Of a stretch of 64,000 bases of DNA, positions 6,001 to 54,748 are shown piece by piece (position 1 is the first letter of the stretch; each line of letters starts with the position of its first letter). The position numbers and the translations under genes are program-made. Origin of the DNA: a virus; IMG/VR virus record IMGVR_UViG_3300023106_000002, positions 31,560 through 95,559 of that record; one strand, 5' to 3'. The notes below the pieces were generated by a model. It had not been told where the DNA came from, made no database searches, and saw nothing but the letters and a program-made list of their open reading frames with translations.

Positions 6001-9000
6001 AAAACTAAAGAAGGTAAGTATGTTTACAGAAGAGACAATGGTACATTAGGACTTAAAGAAGGTTCTATTGATAAAGAGTTAATGAATTTGTTTACATTCA
6101 GAACTCCTACATCTTCTCACGTATCAGGTTCATCTGTAGAAATTGCAGGTATATTGCCTCCTGAAAGTGGAGACTTGATGATTGTACCTAAGAACTTTAC
6201 TAAACAGAAAGGTCTTGATTATGATATTGATAAGGAGTCTGCCTATGCATTAAATCACTATGTAGATGATAATGGCGCCATTAGAGTACTTGATGGTAAT
6301 GCTGTAACAGATATGTTACAGAAATATCAAAACGCTATAGACAAGATCAACAAAGAAAGTAATGCTATTGAGAGTAAAACTCAAGCATTAACTATCTTAA
6401 AAGAGATGTCTAATAGTTCAAGATTTCCATTGAGTGAAGAAGACTTGTTAGAATTTACAAACCCTGAGATAAGTGTGCAAGACATTGCTACACGTGCTAT
6501 GTGGAAATTGAAAACTAAGTTATCAGAGAATGAGTTTATCAGAACTCACTTAGTTGTATTCAATAACCCTAATCCTGTTGTACAGAACAAGATCAATAAA
6601 GTCTTATCTATTGATTTTGCAAAAGAACAAGCTGCAGCAATTGAAAAATTAGAGGCTGAGGGAGAAAAAAATAAAATTATTGCTCAATATATCAAGCAAG
6701 GATTATCACCTCTCGAAGCAGATAAAAAGTACCAAACTGAGGCTATGGATTATACAATGCTGACTTATTCTTATCAAAAAAATAAGATGAGTTTGGGTAG
6801 TATCGGGAAGATTGCTATTGGAGTATATGCAAACTATACTACATTCAATGGACTACTTCAACAAACTGAGGAACAAGTCTTCATGCGTAACAAAGAAGGT
6901 GATCCTACAATAATTAAGATTGGTAAATATGAAAGCAACGGTATATTAGGTGCAGAAAGAACACTTGATGGTGAGAGAACTACTGCTGAAGTATTTGCTG
7001 AAAAGGAAAATACTGCAACAGATAATGAGAAAGAACAAGTACTTGGTAGAGTAGGTGTGAATGAATCGACTATTAATGTTGATGCTCACATGACTTTACG
7101 TGGTTTTGATAAAGATGAAAATGGAAACTCAATATCATACATGTTACTGTCTCAACCTTTAGTTAAAGAACTTAATAAAAGACGTAAAGATAGTAAAGGT
7201 ATTCTTGGTGAATATATTGATGATAACAGTCTAATCAAATCAATGATTGAATCGTTATCAAATAATACTATTACTTATATTCAATCAGGAGAAGGTATGG
7301 ATTTGGAGTATTATTTCACCAATAAGTCTGACATGTCACAAGTTATTATTGATGGTGGTATGTTAAGTGGAAATAATATGCTTGATGGTATAACGTATAA
7401 TGGTGAAAACTTAGATGTACAAAGAGAAGCATTCATGACTTATATTGAACTTGAAAAAGAAGCTAAAGCAGTATCAAGCATTCAAAAAACTATCAATGTT
7501 AATACACTTGGTAAGTCAATGATTGAATCTCAATTGAAATATGAAGGACTTAAAGTATTAGCTGAAAACAAAAAAGTATCAGGAGTTCATAATTTACTTG
7601 GTAATTTCTTAACAAAGAAACCTGAAGATGTTAACAATGGATATTGGATAGGAGATTACTATGTAGTTCCTACTACACCTCAAGGACAGATTGTTATCAA
7701 TGGTTTACATTTAGGTAATACTTTGTATAAAGACTTCTTTCCTTATCAAGATAAAGCAATACTTGATGTTGTAAACGAAATACTTTCAGCTAAAGGTAAA
7801 GATAGTGTATCAGATGCTACAATGATTGATAACTTTGAAACCATTGTGGAAGGTATCAGAAAGTATATTAATTCTCGTCAAGGAAATAACATCTTTAATG
7901 TATCTCCTAAAGCTAAGAGATTTGATTTGTTTAAAGATACAGAAGATAATACTTCTCTTTCTACTTACATGTTAACTATACTTAAAGGAGATACTACTGG
8001 ATATAAAAAAGGATTGAAGTTCTTGAAAAATAATTCATTGATTAAAAGCTTTACTTATGATACTGGTATTGGTAACAATGAAGTATCTACTATTAAGTAT
8101 AACAATGCTGCTACTGATAACTTAGATGAAGAAGATTTATACAATGCAATACCTGAATTAGTATTAGCTAATTTACCATTGCCTGAAAGAAATGGACAAC
8201 CATATTCTACTATGCAACTTGCAGAAGATTTGGTAGCATATTCATTCCTTGAAGGAGGTGTACAAGAAGCTACTCAGTTTATCAAGTATGTACCTGTTGA
8301 GTTCTTAGAATCAATTGGGCAGATGGAAAATGATGTATTTGTACCAGCAAACAGAAAACTTCAGGGATTTAACTCCAAGAAGAATAGTGGTATTAATATT
8401 TTTGCTATAGCATTAGGAATGAAAGAAAATGAAACAAGTACATTTACTAAGCAGTACTTTCAACACAATCCTTCAGATGCTGCAAGGGTTTCATTTAAAG
8501 ATACTCGTGGTCAAAGTAGTTTCAAATACGTAAACACTATTGGTAAAAGTCCTTCTTTTGTTAGCATGAAAAACAAAGCAAAAGATGAAATGAACAAGTT
8601 CACTTTGTATCAAAACATGGGTAATGGTAATTATCAAGAGATTGATACACTTGGTAACTTTGGCATCAGTGAATATGAATATAAAAATGATGCGGTTGCT
8701 TCATTAATGACTAATAAAGTTAATGTTACTCCTGTAGCTAGTGTACAAGAAACAGAACTTGCTGATCCATCTATTACTACTGCATTGAATATTGATAACA
8801 ATACTTCGATTAAAGCAATACTTGGACAAATATCATCAATGAATTTTGCTCCTGAGTATGCTCACTTATCTACTGCTGCTGAATGGTTAGCACCTTTAGC
8901 TAAAAATAAAGGAGTATTTAGTTTTGATAATACTATTCGAGGAGCAGGTTTAGCAATGAGAGAAAGTCTTGATATAAGATTAAATCCTTCAATGACTATT

Positions 9001-42295: not shown

Positions 42296-42934
42296 TTAGA
42301 TCACTACCTGACCAGTTGCTTCCAACTCAGCTTTCAAGTTAGCAGACATGTACACATCTTCTGCATCAGCAGTACGCGCATCAATGTCTCCTTTGGCAAC
42401 TTTTGAAAAATAAGTTTGACGGTATTGGATTTTTCCGTTGTTGTCCAAAATCAGTTTGCCTCGCAAATCAGCAACATCATGTTTCTCTGAATATCTCACA
42501 GCTTGTCTGTCACCAATGCCATCAAGTGTAGTGATACCATTTGCAACAGCATACTTCTGATCGCTGGTCAATACTGGTTTGTTTGACAACACTTTGTAAA
42601 TGGTTGCATTTGGAAACTTGGTCAACTGTTCTTTCACCGCATCAACTGCTGTACCCAATGGCACATCAATCCATGCAACTCTTGTTTCAGTTGCTAAAAA
42701 TTCCTGTTCTGCGAAACCGAAGTCTTCTGTTGCGAAGATGTTATCCTGCATATCGTTGCTTACAGACTTTGACGGGTAGAAACTTTTCGTTTCTATAGTC
42801 TGTTTAATTTCAGCCGATTCAGTACCTTCTTTCTGCCAATCACTTTTGTAAACTCTTGTGATTTCCAAAGCGCCTTTTGTTGACTCCTGACGAACTCTAT
42901 CATTCGTTTGTGTCGTTGTGTTTAATGTTTCCAT
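42296..42934 (-). CDS. Unknown, probably highly expressed protein, 212 aa
   Basis: Not recognised. Hydrophilic alpha/beta protein with no Cys; starts METLNTTTQTNDRVRQ and ends ATGQVVI. Codon use is visibly richer in G/C than the surrounding genes, it stands alone between a 540-base non-coding region and a very strong terminator, and it precedes the replication helicases. These are signs of an individually regulated, abundant protein such as a DNA-binding factor (inference). Confidence 0.65.
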   Translation of the reverse strand: METLNTTTQTNDRVRQESTKGALEITRVYKSDWQKEGTESAEIKQTIETKSFYPSKSVSNDMQDNIFATEDFGFAEQEFLATETRVAWIDVPLGTAVDAVKEQLTKFPNATIYKVLSNKPVLTSDQKYAVANGITTLDGIGDRQAVRYSEKHDVADLRGKLILDNNGKIQYRQTYFSKVAKGDIDARTADAEDVYMSANLKAELEATGQVVI

Positions 42935-42939
42935 TTCGT

Positions 42940-43470
42940 GTGTAAATTAGATTGTAAAATAAATGATTTAAAAAATGAGATTAAGGAACTTACCAACACT
43001 TAACCTCGCAATTTCCCGGATTTAGACATCATGATTACAACATATTAAAACTTAATTTAAATGCCATTCTCACTCTATCAATGAACGTGTAAGTTTTGAT
43101 TTTATTGTTTGAGAACATTAAGTTCTCTAAGACCTCGTGAATATACCCACTAACATATAGGTTGCTCTTCAAACCTCGCTGTTAAAGATTGCTATCTCTT
43201 ACCTCTCTAGCCAATTTCATAGTGAGAAGGATTCGGTAAAGTAATTCACGCACAGTATAAACTCGACAATCTAGTTCGCATACTATATATTGAGTCTTTG
43301 ATTATGAGTGAAAATATTTATAAAAGTTTTATATCATTTCAAAACAGTGAATCTACTAGCTACTTTATAGCAGTCTTGAATACAATAGCGCAGAGTTTAA
43401 TTTAAAGTGTATTTTATAAGGAATAGTGTGCAAGTTAAATCATGGACTGATAAACTCTTGCACACTTAAT
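42940..43470. other. Gene-free intergenic region with long-range inverted repeats
   Basis: No credible ORF in about 530 bases. Contains TTCTCACT (43067-43074) complementary to AGTGAGAA (43221-43228), CGTGAAT (43136-43142) complementary to ATTCACG (43244-43250), a GAGAAC/GTTCTC hairpin at 43111-43127, and a 10-bp stem at 43425-43466. It may be a structured leader of the downstream leftward gene or a non-coding RNA. No tRNA-like T-arm was found. Confidence 0.4.
43425..43466. terminator. Stem-loop after the 43483 gene
   Basis: A 10-bp perfect stem (AGTGTGCAAG at 43425-43434 and CTTGCACACT at 43457-43466) with a 22-base loop, 17 bases past the stop of the leftward gene. Its minus-strand tail (ATTCCTTATAAAATAC) is only moderately T-rich, so a processing or structural role is also possible. 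Confidence 0.55.
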
Positions 43471-43482
43471 TCCAGTTTCGAG

Positions 43483-45413: not shown

Positions 45414-45432
45414 AATTAGTGAGGGTTTTGAG
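45414..45432 (-). promoter_or_regulatory. Promoter-like repeat copy 1
   Basis: Plus-strand AATTAGTGAGGGTTTTGAG, identical over 19 bases to the copies at 51158 and 54730. On the minus strand it reads CTCAAAACCCTCACTAATT and points toward the coiled-coil gene starting at 45213. Confidence 0.6.
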
Positions 45433-47436: not shown

Positions 47437-48180
47437 TTATAATACTCGATACACCATAATCTGTCTGTATCTGTAAACGGGTTTAAATTTGTCGTTGAGT
47501 TCCATGTAATGTCCTATACTTCCTGCTTGATTGTAGAAAATATACTGTCCTTTATGTACAGCTTTACTTAATTGTTCTACAAATAGCTTAGCAAGTTCTT
47601 GTCTTGCCATAGGTTCATACATAAATAATGCATCATAACCCTTCAGGTCATCTTGTTGAATTTTCAACAGATCTTTCAATTTAAGATTAAATGTGCCAGC
47701 ATATTCTGCAATAGATGTGAGAAAGCCTAGTTTAGCATCTTTAACGAAAACTTCTTCATTATCAATACCATCTAATGCAACTGAATATTTATTAAGAAAA
47801 TCAAATCGTTTATCACTTGAAACTACTTGAATAACTTTTCTAACAGCTAACAAGAAAAATCCTGCTCCTGCTCCCATATCTAACATCTTCTTGATTTTAA
47901 AATGTTCAATAAGTTCCACTATGATGTAACTCATTTCAAAGTGTGTTGGGATATAACCCCATTCACTTCCATCTTCTCCCTTTGGTCTACCAACTACATT
48001 ATTGTAATCAGAAGCGTATTTGTTACGAGTAAAGAAGTCATATACACCTTTCATAGCATGTATTTTCTCTGCTATATTAAACATGCTCTTCTTTTGAGTA
48101 TCGTTCAATTCAACAACAGGTTTTAGTGCTTTAAGTTTATCTCTAAAAGTTTTTCTTGGTTTTTTAGTTAATGTTTCCAT
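47437..48180 (-). CDS. SAM-dependent class I methyltransferase, 247 aa
   Basis: Motif I MLDMGAGAGFFLLAV (about residues 98-112) is the SAM-binding glycine loop; an acidic residue follows in the VALDGIDNEE segment (motif II) and YDALFMYEPMARQELAKLF corresponds to motif IV. The N-terminal 90 residues are helical with a YIPTHFEMSYIIVELIEHF segment before the core. It ends in a VYRYRQIMVYRVL strand. The substrate is unknown: neither a DNA (NPPY/DPPY) nor an rRNA signature is visible. It starts two bases after the isocyanide synthase homologue and so may modify its product. Confidence 0.75.
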   Translation of the reverse strand: METLTKKPRKTFRDKLKALKPVVELNDTQKKSMFNIAEKIHAMKGVYDFFTRNKYASDYNNVVGRPKGEDGSEWGYIPTHFEMSYIIVELIEHFKIKKMLDMGAGAGFFLLAVRKVIQVVSSDKRFDFLNKYSVALDGIDNEEVFVKDAKLGFLTSIAEYAGTFNLKLKDLLKIQQDDLKGYDALFMYEPMARQELAKLFVEQLSKAVHKGQYIFYNQAGSIGHYMELNDKFKPVYRYRQIMVYRVL

Positions 48181-48182
48181 GA

Positions 48183-49085
48183 TTATGCTGCTTTAAAGTA
48201 ATAAGGTCTTCCATCTTTCATGATAAGTTCATGTCCTGCTGCAATAGCATCTTTTCTGTGCATCGTTGAAAATACACCTTTGTCTACAACTAATGCTGCG
48301 TGCCATGCTGAATGATGAGCATTTGGTGAGTTAATCAGTTTGAATGAATACTTTACACCATTATTAATTGATGGATGCATTGACAATCTGATGTGATCGC
48401 CAAGATTAGCACGAACTAAGCCTGAATATGCTTCATTTCTGAGCATCATTTCACGAGTTAGAATTTTTGCTCTCTTTGCTTGCTGGTTCTTTGAAGGGAA
48501 ATCAAGATATGCAATCTCCTCTTCCATAAAACGCAGCATACCACGATATAATGTATTAACATCAGCATCTAATAAGATTCTACGACTAAGTTCTTCTTCA
48601 GTAATACCAAATTGACTAGTCAATTTACCTTGTAATGTATTAATTGTTGAAGTTCTATCATAGAAATCTCTTAGATTTAAAATTCTTACTGGTGCTGATC
48701 CAATCATATCAGTTGAAATCTCCTGATAGGCATCCACAGTATTTTCACTAACACCAAGCACATCACTAAAGGCAAAGCCATCTGATGCAATGGTAACAAT
48801 GATTCCCGGTTCATATACAGATTTAACTGCAAGATTGAATGCATCGAAATTAGCTAAAGTTGCTTCTTCTGCCATATCAGGTAGAGTTCCAAGTACTTTA
48901 TCACGAGTATTGGTAGATTTCATAGGAAATCCCATGATTGAAAATAAGATAGGTTTGTTCTGAGAAACAAACACGTTAAGTTTGTCTCTCAGTACTGATT
49001 TACCTATCAAATCATATTGGTCTGTTGCTAAAGGGTTCATTCTGAAACCTTCAAAAATCTGAAGTATTAATCCAAGTGTGTCCAT
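48183..49085 (-). CDS. Isocyanide (isonitrile) synthase homologue, PvcA/DIT1/IsnA family, 300 aa
   Basis: Conserved blocks of the family are present in order: GFPMKSTNT (residues 52-60), DKVLGTLPDMAEEATL (62-77), YEPGIIVTIASDGFAFSDVL (91-110), HIRLSMHPS (231-239), a SAWHAALVV segment (259-267; usually TPWH), and HELIMKDGRPYYF at the end. PvcA-type enzymes turn the amino group of Tyr or Trp into an isocyanide using ribulose-5-phosphate. Length matches the family. There is no adjacent PvcB-type Fe/2-oxoglutarate oxygenase; instead a methyltransferase follows and a cupin dioxygenase-like gene lies upstream. The phage role and substrate are unknown. Confidence 0.88.
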   Translation of the reverse strand: MDTLGLILQIFEGFRMNPLATDQYDLIGKSVLRDKLNVFVSQNKPILFSIMGFPMKSTNTRDKVLGTLPDMAEEATLANFDAFNLAVKSVYEPGIIVTIASDGFAFSDVLGVSENTVDAYQEISTDMIGSAPVRILNLRDFYDRTSTINTLQGKLTSQFGITEEELSRRILLDADVNTLYRGMLRFMEEEIAYLDFPSKNQQAKRAKILTREMMLRNEAYSGLVRANLGDHIRLSMHPSINNGVKYSFKLINSPNAHHSAWHAALVVDKGVFSTMHRKDAIAAGHELIMKDGRPYYFKAA

Positions 49086-49105
49086 GATTTGAATGTGTTT
49101 TTGTT

Positions 49106-49633
49106 TTATTGTGGTTGTCTACATGCTGGGTAAGGACAGTCAACTGATGGTTCATCTTTTACAGCATTTCGACTGTCATATTTTTTAATAGCATCTTCCA
49201 ATCCTTGTAAAGGATTATCTTTAGTAGTATCTTCTTGTTTAACATCAGAATTGATGTTTTCAGGTGCAGTTGCATTCTTAACAGGATGATCAAAAGTAAA
49301 TTGAGCCATTTTCACAGCAACTGCTGATTGAGTTGATTGTTCTCTTCTTTCTTTACGCATGTTTGCAAGAACAGCAAGAAGTTCTATTGCATCATGTGTA
49401 AGAGCAATTGTAGTTCTTGTGATGTTTTTTGGTTCAAAGATTGTTTCGGTAGTTCTACCAATAATCTTTTTCATTCTTCTGCGCATGATGATAATGTAAC
49501 CATCACCTTTTTCTTTGTCCATAAGAGTAATTTCAACTTTGCCTGTTCTACCTTGAATAGCATTATCAAAGTGTCTAACCATAAGAGTTTTACCAATGTT
49601 CGATAACTTTGCATCGTTTTGTTCTGTGTTCAT
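49106..49633 (-). CDS. Hypothetical protein of the isocyanide synthase cluster, 175 aa
   Basis: Not recognised. The first 105 residues are beta-rich and basic (VEITLMDKEKGDGYIIIMRRRMKK, then helix LTHDAIELLAVLANMRKER); the remainder is disordered and acidic, ending in DCPYPACRQPQ. Lies between the cupin and isocyanide synthase genes, with a terminator hairpin separating it from the cupin. Confidence 0.6.
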   Translation of the reverse strand: MNTEQNDAKLSNIGKTLMVRHFDNAIQGRTGKVEITLMDKEKGDGYIIIMRRRMKKIIGRTTETIFEPKNITRTTIALTHDAIELLAVLANMRKERREQSTQSAVAVKMAQFTFDHPVKNATAPENINSDVKQEDTTKDNPLQGLEDAIKKYDSRNAVKDEPSVDCPYPACRQPQ

Positions 49634-49664
49634 GTGTTTAACTTATTAATGATTAATTTAAAAA

Positions 49665-49690
49665 AAGAGTGCAAGGTTAATTGCACTCTT
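49665..49690 (-). terminator. Intrinsic terminator (leftward)
   Basis: Perfect 10-bp stem AAGAGTGCAA (49665-49674)/TTGCACTCTT (49681-49690) with a 6-base loop and a run of seven T on the minus strand. It ends the cupin gene transcript. Confidence 0.87.
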
Positions 49691-49710
49691 ATCTGGCCTT
49701 GTGGTATTTA

Positions 49711-50715
49711 TTACACTTCAGGAAATACAACAGTACCATCTACGATAGCAATGTTATGAAACTGATGAAATGCTTCTTTAGCATCATCATTTAATTTCAA
49801 TAACGTCAATCCCATTCTTAACGGGAACGTATCAAGTAAATGACTTGCTGTTTCTGATGCTATTACAGCATTGTCTTGTACTCTGAAACCATGTGCTTTC
49901 ATTACTGGTGGACCAGTAACTACAATGTAATGATCTCCATACTCAGGTACATTAGTACTTCTTACAAGTACAACATCACCTTTTTGAAGATACATACCAT
50001 CTTTTGAGTTAATGCGTTTAACATCAAAAGGATTCAATGGAAAATGAGCAACTGTGTAAGCATTGTCTCTTCCATCACGAGTATGCTCAGGTAAATAATG
50101 TAACGATACAGCATTGCCAACTGATACAAAGTTATGTACAAGATTGACTCTTGTTACATCAGGCTTTTGCATTTGATACTCAGATACAAATACACCTTTC
50201 TCTTTGATCTCAGTTAATACTGGTCTTACAATGCGATGTTCAAGGTCAACAATACGATAAGTATTTACACGAATGCGTCCTGAAAGAACTTCTTCATGCA
50301 TATAACCATCAGAATGACCATGTACAGGTGATGTAAATCCATCTCCCCATCTCGCAATGACCAATTCTTTTCCTTCTTTCCATGCTGTTTGACCAGCATA
50401 AGAAACTACAGGACTCGGCGCCTCCATTGCAATGATTGTACGATCAAATTCTCCTTTTGCTGGTTCGTTTTCAAGTGTCCAATCATCTTTCTGCAACTGT
50501 TCTGACAAGTGCTGCATAACTTGTTGCGTAACATTAATCTTCTCTTGAAGATATTCATCACCATCTGTAAGTACAGGTAATGATTCAAAGTATTGTTCAT
50601 ATCCTGCTCTGTACATTTTCATGTGTTCAGGTTGTCCAATGTAAGCGATTTTTGCAATGTCTTCTACAGGTGTAGTACTTGCATTAAGATGTGTTGATCT
50701 TTCTAATGTGTCCAT
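49711..50715 (-). CDS. Cupin thiol-dioxygenase-like protein (cysteine dioxygenase fold), 334 aa
   Basis: The core ELVIARWGDGFTSPVHGHSDG (about residues 117-137) with HxH at His132/His134, then EEVLSGRIRVNTYRI, and later HNFVSVGNAVSLHYLPEH with His206 as likely third iron ligand, follow the cupin pattern of cysteine dioxygenases, which oxidise thiols to sulfinates. At 334 residues it is longer than CDO (about 200); about 80 residues precede the core and about 120 follow it. Substrate unknown. It begins the transcript segment leading to the isocyanide synthase homologue. Confidence 0.7.
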   Translation of the reverse strand: MDTLERSTHLNASTTPVEDIAKIAYIGQPEHMKMYRAGYEQYFESLPVLTDGDEYLQEKINVTQQVMQHLSEQLQKDDWTLENEPAKGEFDRTIIAMEAPSPVVSYAGQTAWKEGKELVIARWGDGFTSPVHGHSDGYMHEEVLSGRIRVNTYRIVDLEHRIVRPVLTEIKEKGVFVSEYQMQKPDVTRVNLVHNFVSVGNAVSLHYLPEHTRDGRDNAYTVAHFPLNPFDVKRINSKDGMYLQKGDVVLVRSTNVPEYGDHYIVVTGPPVMKAHGFRVQDNAVIASETASHLLDTFPLRMGLTLLKLNDDAKEAFHQFHNIAIVDGTVVFPEV

Positions 50716-50902: not shown

Positions 50903-51124
50903 TTAAATGTTTGATTTGTTTCTGAATATATTTGTTGATTTAGACTTCATTGGTTTAGAAGTACTGTACTTAGCATTGGTTGATTTCTTAGCAAGTTTAT
51001 GCTTATCGACACCTTTACTACTCTTCTTAGGATGATTAGTAATTTGAAGTGCACGTTCTATTTTTCTTGTTGATGCTGATATAAGCATCAGACCTCCAAG
51101 TATTACTTTAAGTGAGTTCTTCAT
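50903..51124 (-). CDS. Small, very basic protein, 73 aa
   Basis: Hydrophobic start (SLKVILGGLMLISAS) that could be a signal or membrane anchor, followed by a Lys/Ser/Asn-rich basic tail (KKSSKGVDKHKLAKKSTNAK). Function unknown. Its ATG lies 33 bases downstream of the promoter-like repeat at 51158-51176, one of the best-placed copies. Confidence 0.6.
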   Translation of the reverse strand: MKNSLKVILGGLMLISASTRKIERALQITNHPKKSSKGVDKHKLAKKSTNAKYSTSKPMKSKSTNIFRNKSNI

Positions 51125-51157
51125 TGGTGTTTTAAATTTAAATTGTTGATAACTCGT

Positions 51158-51176
51158 AATTAGTGAGGGTTTTGAG
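51158..51176 (-). promoter_or_regulatory. Promoter-like repeat copy 2
   Basis: Same 19 bases as copies 1 and 3 (minus strand CTCAAAACCCTCACTAATT), 33 bases upstream of the ATG at 51124. Confidence 0.65.
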
Positions 51177-51213
51177 CAGATTAAAATGTAAAATAAAAAG
51201 ATAGACTACACAT

Positions 51214-51603
51214 AAGGAGCAAGTTCTTCAACTGCTCCTTAGTATAGTCACCTCAAAATAAAGTCAACACAACTTTAATTCTTTAATGTTTTCTCTTGGT
51301 TTTTACAACTGATAGTCAAGTCATATAGCCCTAATAACAAGTAAGGATTAAGCCTTAAATGTCGTAACAGCAATACGCTGATCTATAACTTGATTGAGTG
51401 CGTATCTAAAACTCATCTTCTCTATCAGTTGTCATCAAATCTACTTGTCGTACCTACAGGAGAGAACCAATCCCCTTATAAAACAAGTTGTACTCTTTGA
51501 AAGTACAGAGAAATGATAACTTAAACTACATCAGTCTTGACTGGGATGATGAAACTCCCACCAAATGTTATCGCGACTTACATCAAGACTGATATGTTGT
51601 AGT
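51214..51603. other. Gene-free region with several structured elements
   Basis: About 400 bases without a credible ORF. It contains an AAGGAGCA/TGCTCCTT hairpin (51214-51240), an 11-bp stem ACAACTGATAG (51305-51315)/CTATCAGTTGT (51422-51432) enclosing a 106-base domain with nested stems, and an 11-bp stem ATCAGTCTTGA (51530-51540)/TCAAGACTGAT (51583-51593) holding a GGGA/TCCC hairpin and the motif TATCGCGAC (51569-51577). GATAAC (51515-51520) could pair with GTTATC (51567-51572) to form a pseudoknot. Likely structured non-coding RNA(s); strand unknown. Confidence 0.5.
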
Positions 51604-51606
51604 TAT

Positions 51607-51972
51607 TTAGTGAATAGGTGTATCGAGATCAATCTCTTTCTTACCTTTGAAACGAAATCCTTGTTCTTCCATCTTATCTTTCATGTGATGTCTTTCAATA
51701 TGCTTGTTAGCAATATTGAGTTTTGTTTCAGCATCATCAAGTTTGCGATAAATGATTTGGATACGTTCTTTTTGTTCTTGCGACATAGATACTAATGTCA
51801 AATTCTCTTCAATCAATTTATCATTGATTTTGTTCATCTTGATAAGATCTGCTGCCTTACTCTTACCAGCAACAATAAGTGCTGATATTGTAATGAGTAA
51901 ATAGGTGATGAATATGGCTAGTGCTATAAAAGCAGTCCATATAATAAACGGTTGTGTTAGTGTTGAGTTCAT
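51607..51972 (-). CDS. Membrane-anchored coiled-coil protein, 121 aa
   Basis: One transmembrane helix (FIIWTAFIALAIFITYLLITISALIVAG) followed by a cytoplasmic coiled coil (KLIEENLTLVSMSQEQKERIQIIYRKLDD) and a basic end. I use the ATG at 51972 (MNSTLTQ), which directly follows the upstream stop at 51974; the frame opens further to 51996 but would overlap. Function unknown. Confidence 0.6.
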   Translation of the reverse strand: MNSTLTQPFIIWTAFIALAIFITYLLITISALIVAGKSKAADLIKMNKINDKLIEENLTLVSMSQEQKERIQIIYRKLDDAETKLNIANKHIERHHMKDKMEEQGFRFKGKKEIDLDTPIH

Positions 51973-51973
51973 T

Positions 51974-52222
51974 TTAAAGTTTGTTATAAATTTCAATTGC
52001 AGTAACTAAGCTGCTACCATCATATACCACTTCATAAGCAGGATGCTTAGCAGTATAATGTCTTACTTCAATACGTGCAAAAGCACTTAATCGTGTAAAG
52101 CGCACATTAACAAGCATTTTCTTGTATCCAAATCCATCAGATGCATAACTTCCATACATATCTGTTGTATAAAGATTGTCGATTACTGTATCAACAGTTA
52201 ATTCGCTAGTTATTTGTGTCAT
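51974..52222 (-). CDS. Hypothetical protein, 82 aa
   Basis: Not recognised; compact beta-rich protein (MLVNVRFTRLSAFARIEVRHYTAKHPAYEVVYDG). Overlaps the SANT-like gene stop by one base. Confidence 0.55.
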   Translation of the reverse strand: MTQITSELTVDTVIDNLYTTDMYGSYASDGFGYKKMLVNVRFTRLSAFARIEVRHYTAKHPAYEVVYDGSSLVTAIEIYNKL

Positions 52223-52785
52223 TAGTCTAAAGCTAGAATTTCAACTATGAATGTTCCTGTGATTTTAAAGTTGCCTTTTAATGATATTCCACCAAGTGAT
52301 GTAGTACCAGCAACAGTAAATGATTGTCCTTCTGATGTTAAAGACTTGAATGGTAACTGTTCAGTTTCGCTTAGATTTTCATCATCAACGAGTTCCTCAT
52401 TGTTATCTTCTCTACCTAAAGATATAGCATGAATACGTTCAGCATAAGCTGTATCATCTTCATCATGTCTTTGAACAACTTGTGCTCTAAGATTAGCAAT
52501 GTCTTCATTGAATTGGTTAGCAAGTCTTACTCTTTCTTTACCTTCTTCAATAAGTATAAGTCTTTGCTTTTCACGCATCTTGAGGAATTTAGCTGATGTA
52601 ATAACACCATCAAGTTTTCCCTCTTTTGCAGCGTTATAGAACTTGTAAGCAATTGCTGCAACTGTTCTCTTAGGTATTAAAGCATTAACCAGTTTAAATG
52701 CTGATTTGAAATTGGTTGATTGCTCAACTGCTTCAACAAGATAGTTGAATTCCTCATCAGTCCAAGGTAATCCTATTGTATTCAT
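52222..52785 (-). CDS. SANT/Myb-like DNA-binding domain protein, 187 aa
   Basis: Residues 8-52 (WTDEEFNYLVEAVEQS...SAFKLVNALIPKRTVAAIAYKFYNA) show the W-x2-EE, LIPKRT and spaced aromatic pattern of SANT/Myb-type three-helix domains. A helical linker follows, then an acidic region and a beta-rich C terminus with small residues. A candidate early transcription regulator. It is encoded directly downstream of the structured region at 52812-53145. Confidence 0.6.
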   Translation of the reverse strand: MNTIGLPWTDEEFNYLVEAVEQSTNFKSAFKLVNALIPKRTVAAIAYKFYNAAKEGKLDGVITSAKFLKMREKQRLILIEEGKERVRLANQFNEDIANLRAQVVQRHDEDDTAYAERIHAISLGREDNNEELVDDENLSETEQLPFKSLTSEGQSFTVAGTTSLGGISLKGNFKITGTFIVEILALD

Positions 52786-52811
52786 GTTGTTTATGTGTTA
52801 AGTTAAAAAAA

Positions 52812-53145
52812 TAGCTGTCATGGTAATCACAACTCAAAAAAAGTATCATGTCAATAAAACTAATATCGCGACCATGACAGCTAATAAAAACTCCTTGAAT
52901 AGTTGTACCTTCTGAGTACATTCACTTATGTTACTATTCAATCAAAGATAACAGAACGAGATGCTTATTACTAAGCGTTATCTTTGCATTTTGACACTAA
53001 TATATTTTAATAAATAAACTTCCAATAGTCTTACGCTGTTAATCTGACCTAATTCTATCGTGTCGATACACTTTAATATGTATTAATAGGTACTCCTTAG
53101 AGTTTTATCTTCAGGACTGGAATGTGACACCTGTATTGGAAGTTT
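52812..53145. other. Gene-free region with two long-stem structured elements
   Basis: First element: a 13-bp perfect stem TAGCTGTCATGGT (52812-52824)/ACCATGACAGCTA (52871-52883), with TATCGCGAC (52864-52872) at its 3' side, a motif shared with the element at 51530-51593. Then TTGAATAG/CTATTCAA and AAAGATAAC/GTTATCTTT stems (about 52896-52986). Second element: a 12-bp stem AAACTTCCAATA (53006-53017)/TATTGGAAGTTT (53134-53145) enclosing 116 bases that include TATCG/CGATA. No ORF. Confidence 0.5.
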
Positions 53146-53231
53146 AAATGTTAACCTAATTGTTATCTCGCTAATGTGTATAAGGTTGCATACACAATTA
53201 CATAGTTATTACTGTCCCGAATAACGTGGTT

Positions 53232-54612: not shown

Positions 54613-54682
54613 AAACTCCTGAAACATTATGAACATCTTCACAAGCATTGACACTATCTATTCACAATATTATCAGGAGTTT
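54613..54682. other. Structured leader element
   Basis: 10-bp perfect stem AAACTCCTGA (54613-54622)/TCAGGAGTTT (54673-54682) enclosing 50 bases, located between the promoter-like repeat at 54730 and the leftward gene. A second hairpin GAGACA/TGTCTC lies near 54560-54580. Likely a folded 5' leader. Confidence 0.45.
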
Positions 54683-54729: not shown

Positions 54730-54748
54730 AATTAGTGAGGGTTTTGAG
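54730..54748 (-). promoter_or_regulatory. Promoter-like repeat copy 3
   Basis: Identical 19-base element (minus strand CTCAAAACCCTCACTAATT), upstream of the structured leader of the 54239-54466 gene. Confidence 0.6.

What the first reader, a model, noticed from the sequence alone, without database searches (positions are those of the whole stretch)
52812..53145. Second structured region sharing the TATCGCGAC motif
A 13-bp stem and a 12-bp stem mark two elements; TATCGCGAC lies at the 3' edge of the first, as it does in the element at 51530-51593, and TACGCTG occurs in both larger elements (near 51305-51432 and 53006-53145). This suggests two RNA families present twice within 2 kb.
Basis: partly seen in the sequence, partly recalled or inferred. 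Interest (0 to 1): 0.7.

Follow-up and report, generated by a model that had tools for sequence, protein, structure and literature searches.

The report
Phage cluster of stem-closed structured RNAs
Two gaps between genes of a relative of Flavobacterium phages hold several long-stemmed hairpin elements; the two larger ones belong to two different, previously unlisted RNA families that other phages also carry, and in those phages such elements often cluster near a ribosome-rescue RNA (tmRNA).

Summary
The stems are real: 52812-52824/52871-52883 and 53015-53027/53134-53146 (both 13 bp). TATCGCGAC occurs only twice in the 95.5 kb record, once in each small element. Genes here are on the minus strand; the elements fill two noncoding gaps (51125-51606; 52786-53231) with five stem-closed elements against 0.2 expected (0 of 2000 shuffles).

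'Two RNA families, each twice' is only partly right. The larger elements belong to two different families. 53016-53145 has homologues in three other phage records. 51305-51432 has two, with a 4-bp hairpin that covaries in all three around a near-invariant 11-nt loop, and a loop pseudoknot that covaries in two of three. Their shared TACGCTG is chance (p about 0.65). The small elements share GTCGCGATA (p about 0.01; 0.0004 if GC-rich) but no alignable fold and no known homologue.

In relatives, stem-closed elements cluster in gene gaps; 14 of 20 records also carry a tmRNA. Best reading: structured RNAs transcribed within early operons, probably excised at the long stems to act in trans. The families are well supported; excision and function are inferred.

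The parts
53015..53146 (-). Large element B: 13-bp closing stem, 106-nt loop; starts (minus strand) AAACUUCYAAUACAGGUGUCACAUUCCAGYCCUGAA with hairpin CAGG/CCUG; family of four phage records
52812..52883 (-). Small element B: 13-bp stem, 46-nt loop, followed on the minus strand by U7; 26 nt before the ATG at 52785
52864..52872 (-). Shared motif GTCGCGATA (TATCGCGAC on plus), copy in small element B
52943..52986 (-). Hairpin, 10-bp stem, 24-nt loop, in the same gap
52895..52941 (-). Hairpin, 9-bp stem, 29-nt loop, in the same gap
51305..51432 (-). Large element A: 11-bp closing stem, 4-bp hairpin GAGU/ACUC with loop UUUAGAUACGC, AUUGC..GCUAU pair, terminal hairpin UAAGG-CUUAAU-CCUUA; family of three phage records
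51530..51593 (-). Small element A: 11-bp stem, 42-nt loop, starts 13 nt after the stop codon of ORF 51607-51996
51569..51577 (-). Shared motif GTCGCGATA, copy in small element A
51214..51240 (-). 8-bp hairpin after large element A, then a T-rich stretch about 10 nt on; possible end of the transcript (the terminator scan does not list it)
51158..51175 (-). Promoter-like motif TCAAAACCCTCACTAATT before ORF 50903-51124, after the elements of gap A
54730..54747 (-). Nearest upstream copy of the promoter-like motif; proposed start of the transcript that runs through both gaps
51607..52785 (-). Three ORFs (52222-52785, 51974-52222, 51607-51996) bracketed by the two small elements; the first has a weak Myb-like match

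Best explanation
The two gaps hold a row of small structured RNAs, encoded on the minus strand inside an early operon of a phage related to Flavobacterium phages Fpv1-Fpv4. Each unit is closed by a 9-13 bp stem. The two larger units are members of two separate RNA families that recur in other phages. SHOWN: homologues in other phages, always on the strand of the neighbouring genes; conserved loops; compensatory changes in the stems of the 51.3 kb family; clusters of such units in relatives' gene gaps. INFERRED: the units are co-transcribed with the operon from the promoter-like motif near 54747, the long closing stems are cut (RNase III-like), and the released RNAs act in trans, as phage tRNAs are cut out of operon transcripts. 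The tmRNA frequent in relatives suggests action on translation or on host defence early in infection, which is a guess. Small element B, with U7 after its stem, may double as a weak terminator before the next gene.
For: Five closed elements in 928 nt against 0.2 expected. Large element B: 89% over 53 nt, E 1.4e-13, in G032, and two more phage records by pattern; model scores 115-140 bits for the four members against 27.6 for the next of 36 records. Large element A: 80% over 50 nt, E 1.4e-7, in G027; a third member in G032 found by eye; P1a stems GAGU/ACUC, CCUU/AAGG, CCCU/AGGG all pair around loop WUUAGAUAYGS; AUUGC..GCUAU spacing 40, 40, 42; closing stems differ in sequence but pair; a core descriptor hits the three plus one weaker site in 162 loci. 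Elements lie on the strand of adjacent genes: 4 of 4 (family B), 3 of 3 (family A), 8 of 8 (a third family in relatives). Modules of the G032 cluster recur in G025, G026, G027, G007, G041. No promoter-like motif between the gaps.
Against: Folding is as strong on the plus strand. Two family members in other phages fold little better than shuffles (z -1.3 and -1.8; the 129-nt part of the third family-A member -0.7). Family B covariation is one pair of 16, reached by 119 of 500 shuffles. blastn does not link the third family-A member to the window. Neither small element has a homologue, and small element A was not searched over the 43 whole records. No expression data; excision and trans action are untested.
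Confidence: 0.5

Rival explanations
1. Cis-acting control elements of the operon: attenuators, terminators or antiterminators in the leader and tail of each gene block, working on the nascent transcript without being excised.
For: Small element B has a 13-bp stem followed by U7 and sits 26 nt before an ATG. A hairpin 54613-54682 with a T-rich tail lies between the motif near 54747 and the first ORF. Small elements in relatives also often precede T-rich stretches.
Against: The larger elements occur next to different, non-homologous genes and in rows of several units, and their cores are conserved while neighbours are not. The terminator scan lists none of them.
Confidence: 0.25
2. Mobile or recombining DNA elements with inverted-repeat ends (MITE-like or single-strand hairpin cassettes); the two small elements bracket a three-ORF cassette.
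For: Family B keeps its terminal repeats nearly unchanged (11 of 12 pairs never vary) around a variable middle; modules occur in different orders in different phages; small elements share a palindromic motif and bracket three ORFs.
Against: Family A has different end sequences that still pair, with conserved inner loops, the reverse of terminal repeats of a transposon. All members lie on the strand of adjacent genes. No target duplication was looked for.
Confidence: 0.12
3. The two small elements touch each other by their GUCGCGAU loops (8-nt self-complementary with two G-U pairs), bridging the start and end of the three-ORF block on one transcript.
For: A rare 9-mer present only in these two hairpins of the record, p 0.0004 for a GC-rich 9-mer; positions bracket three ORFs.
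Against: In the predicted fold of small element B the motif is mostly paired inside the hairpin. No homologous pair in relatives.
Confidence: 0.08
4. Chance palindromes in AT-rich DNA.
For: Over the whole window, inverted repeats of at least 10 bp are only slightly more frequent than in shuffles (31 against 12-27).
Against: Clustering in the two gaps and homologues of both larger elements in other phages.
Confidence: 0.03

Closest known systems
GOLLD and ROOL RNAs of phages (PMC12286853, passages seen)
   Same: Structured phage RNAs of unknown function, encoded in gene gaps, often near translation RNAs
   Different: They are several hundred nucleotides or more and are held in Rfam; the window elements are 64-132 nt and match no Rfam family
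Phage tRNA and tmRNA clusters (Rfam RF00005, RF00023)
   Same: Rows of small RNA units in gene gaps; in relatives the units lie beside a tmRNA
   Different: No tRNA or tmRNA in the window, no tmRNA in the own record; folds are not tRNA-like
Intrinsic terminators and attenuators
   Same: Small element B: stem, then U7, before a gene
   Different: 46-nt loop; not listed by the terminator scan with loop 3-8
Third stem-closed family upstream of the tmRNA in relatives (L083, L085, L088, L092, L097, L098, L100, L111)
   Same: Closing stem plus a 5' hairpin whose loop pairs downstream (pseudoknot), as in large element A
   Different: No sequence similarity to the window elements

Membership tests
Any Rfam 15 family | Score at or above the family's gathering cut-off | tested here: not met
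   0 matches in the window; at E up to 5 only chance-like matches, far below cut-off
tmRNA (RF00023) | tmRNA model or ARAGORN match | tested here: not met
   in the window; 0 in the own record
GOLLD / ROOL | Rfam model match and size of several hundred nt | tested here: not met
   elements are 64-132 nt
Intrinsic terminator | GC-rich stem with short loop, then T run | tested here: not met
   scan lists none of the elements; small element B has the stem and U7 but a 46-nt loop
Family of large element B (defined here) | Homologous sequence and closing stem | tested here: met
Family of large element A (defined here) | Closing stem, P1a hairpin with loop WUUAGAUAYGS, AUUGC..GCUAU, CUUAAU terminal hairpin | tested here: met
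   loop pseudoknot met in two of three
   10.4 bits, E 4.4; shared 7-mer is chance
   rare shared 9-mer but no alignable fold
Processed trans-acting small RNA | Discrete transcript with ends at the closing stem | not testable with these tools
   no expression data are held
Transposon-like inverted-repeat element | Conserved terminal repeats across copies | tested here: inconclusive
   met by family B, not by family A

The most novel reading that the evidence does not exclude
A group of Flavobacterium-phage relatives carries modular RNA clusters: exchangeable, stem-closed, often pseudoknotted RNA units of many unlisted families (including one of roughly 350-430 nt outside this window), excised from early operons and acting together as a second kind of phage RNA arsenal beside tRNA clusters, for example against host defence or to take over translation.
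Probability: 0.3. Interest if true: 0.8.

Novelty: new variant of a known kind. Interest (0 to 1): 0.52.

Why it matters
Phage structured RNAs of unknown function are an open problem. Two families with defined cores, two to three further phage records each, and a recurring setting (early operon gaps, a tmRNA nearby in relatives, culturable relatives in Flavobacterium psychrophilum) give concrete RNAs to look for in infection RNA-seq, and suggest that gene gaps in these genomes are not empty.

Tried and rejected
Shared TACGCTG as evidence of homology between the larger elements: rejected as chance. One family for both larger elements: rejected. Rfam, tRNA and tmRNA identity: none in the window. 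A gapped pattern around the motif in viral contigs gave 21 hits on assorted contigs, about what chance gives by my own rough estimate; not followed. Protein searches with ORFs near the elements found no relatives; DNA of the region had no match in annotated phages. L122, found by a pattern of the 51.3 kb core, is GC-rich DNA full of ORFs and was rejected. The G034 hit to the 51.3 kb element lies in coding-looking sequence and was rejected. Alignments A4, A5 and A8 do not bring stems or motifs into register; stems of the 51.3 kb family were therefore checked by script. In one search the script's automatic choice of the first helix for four of eight third-family members (L088, L092, L100, L098) is not the helix seen by eye, and its closing-stem count fails for L088 and L098; only the second helix is claimed from it. 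A remembered resemblance of part of small element B (plus strand) to a CRISPR repeat of Bacteroidetes is recalled only; (listing) gave nothing on it and it was not tested. The DNA-element reading was considered and ranked low.

Full report
What the window is. The window is 64 kb of a 95,559-base virus record. Its DNA polymerase, helicase and 1603-aa protein match phage families, and a 212-aa protein (42296-42934) is 58% identical to one in 29 records of Flavobacterium phages, two of which were opened and are classed as Fipvunavirus. PMC7886860 (one passage seen) mentions a genome that groups with Flavobacterium phage Fpv3 outside the five main crAss-like groups. The genes from 42 to 55 kb are on the minus strand, so minus is taken as the sense strand.

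The observation. Both stems exist; the second is 13 bp, not 12. TATCGCGAC occurs twice and only twice in the record. In the two gaps, 51125-51606 and 52786-53231, there are 5 inverted repeats with stem of at least 10 bp and loop of 20-150 nt, out of 18 in the window; 2000 Markov shuffles of the gaps gave a mean of 0.2 and a maximum of 4. Two random stretches of the small loops' size share some 9-mer in about 1% of trials and a 9-mer with five or more G/C in 0.04%; two 106-nt stretches share a 7-mer in 65%. So the small elements' shared motif is suggestive, and TACGCTG means nothing.

Finding relatives. No Rfam family, tRNA or tmRNA lies in the window. A promoter-like motif, TCAAAACCCTCACTAATT, precedes several window genes and is exact in 15 viral contigs; 11 of those 15 records encode the 212-aa protein (18 of 22 records searched, own and Fpv records included). 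An alignment of that protein brought 39 loci. In their gene gaps, often just upstream of that gene, lie a tmRNA (14 of 20 records; also in G027, L111 and G032) and further stem-closed elements.

Large element A, 51305-51432. It matches G027 with 80% identity over 50 nt (E 1.4e-7). A third member was recognised by eye in G032 (L136:8502-8684); blastn alone does not link it to the window (no match in the own record). What links the three is a set of features checked by script: a closing stem with different sequence in each (11 of the first 12 positions pair in all three), a 4-bp hairpin GAGU/ACUC, CCUU/AAGG, CCCU/AGGG around an 11-nt loop WUUAGAUAYGS, the pair AUUGC..GCUAU 40, 40 and 42 nt apart, and a terminal hairpin with loop CUUAAU. 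The loop can pair with the segment before the core: AUACGC/GCGUAU in the window, AUAUGC/GCAUAU in G032, only 4 of 6 in G027. A descriptor of the core finds the three members plus one weaker hit in 162 loci, 1.30 Mb. In G032 a small closed element (8424-8495) starts 5 nt after a stop codon and is followed by the large one, the order seen in gap A.

Large element B, 53015-53146. It matches G032 with 89% identity over 53 nt (E 1.4e-13); a 26-position pattern finds it in three viral records, G032 and two new ones (L159, L161), and in none of the bacterial and archaeal genomes held. The four share AAACUUCYAAUACAGGUGUCACAUUCCAGYCCUGAA and the end UAUURGAAGUUU. Covariation is thin: 16 of 16 pairs hold in all four, but only one changes on both sides and 119 of 500 shuffles reach that. 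A model built from the four gives them 115-140 bits; the next best place in 36 records has 27.6 bits. It gives the 51.3 kb element 10.4 bits, E 4.4, and small element B 10.6-12 bits: the larger elements are two families.

Setting in relatives. G032 has a 1.4 kb noncoding stretch (L136:5650-7060) that begins with the element B homologue and continues with other stem-closed units; stretches of it recur singly or with other spacing in G025, G026, G027, G007 and G041. Inverted repeats of the same kind are above shuffles in two of four blocks tested (G032: 3 versus 0.32, 1 of 300 shuffles reach it; G027: 3 versus 0.12, 0 of 300) and not clearly so in the other two (17 and 15 of 300). A third family, upstream of the tmRNA in 8 loci, again has a closing stem and a loop pseudoknot whose strands read CUGGAA/UUCCAG in three loci and CAGGAA/UUCCUG in five.

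Small elements. No homologue was found by the motif in the 21 other records or, with one mismatch, in a hairpin in 485 kb of loci (one one-mismatch site has an 8-nt A/T-only repeat around it, which I discount), nor by blastn of both gaps against 49 loci, nor, for gap B only, against 42 other records. Small element A itself was not searched over those records. Small element B has U7 after its stem and lies 26 nt before an ATG; small element A lies 13 nt after a stop codon; together they bracket three ORFs. GUCGCGAU is self-complementary over 8 nt counting two G-U pairs, so loop-loop contact is possible, but the predicted fold of element B has the motif mostly paired.

Reading. Homology across phages, co-orientation with genes (4 of 4, 3 of 3, 8 of 8), conserved loops and changing stems speak for RNA function of the two larger elements. 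No copy of the promoter-like motif lies inside gap B or between the gaps, so the units are most likely read through from the motif near 54747. That the long stems are processing sites and that the RNAs act in trans is inference by analogy with phage tRNA clusters (recalled knowledge); cis control is the main rival.

Novelty. Nothing in Rfam 15 matches the window elements, and among relatives' loci only tmRNA, a tRNA and a DUF805b element match. The paper searches made (listings only, open-licence papers only) show no description of such units. GOLLD and ROOL (PMC12286853, passages seen) are the nearest kind: structured phage RNAs of unknown function, often near tRNA islands.

Noticed in passing
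L136:6570-6920, L095:2204-2451, L168 (reverse strand, around 2075-2098): A candidate larger RNA of roughly 350-430 nt with several almost identical segments (such as UUUACAUAAAGAUACUAAUCCUGAAYUGACAGG) in several phage records and in one contig filed as a Mollicutes MAG; no Rfam match.
   Followed up: partly
L034:5948-6362, L097:2766-3236, L136:13036-13443 and others: tmRNA genes in many relatives of this phage (14 of 20 records), absent from the own record.
   Followed up: partly
window 47437-50715: Neighbouring ORFs match DIT1_PvcA (E 1.9e-58), weakly cysteine dioxygenase and a methyltransferase: a possible small-molecule biosynthesis cluster in a phage.
   Followed up: no
window 54730-54747, 51158-51175, about 45414-45431 (minus strand): Exact copies of a promoter-like motif TCAAAACCCTCACTAATT shared with Flavobacterium-phage relatives; weaker copies upstream.
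   Followed up: partly
window 54613-54682: Hairpin with 10-bp stem and 50-nt loop followed (minus strand) by a T-rich stretch, between the motif near 54747 and the first ORF; similar in shape to small element B.
   Followed up: no
window 42935-43482: Noncoding stretch upstream of the 212-aa protein gene, similar (E about 3e-11 over 150 nt) to the same place in Fpv-type relatives.
   Followed up: no
L113, L114: ARAGORN lists a tRNA with anticodon cta (named tRNA-Pyl) and odd tRNA-like genes upstream of the conserved gene.
   Followed up: no
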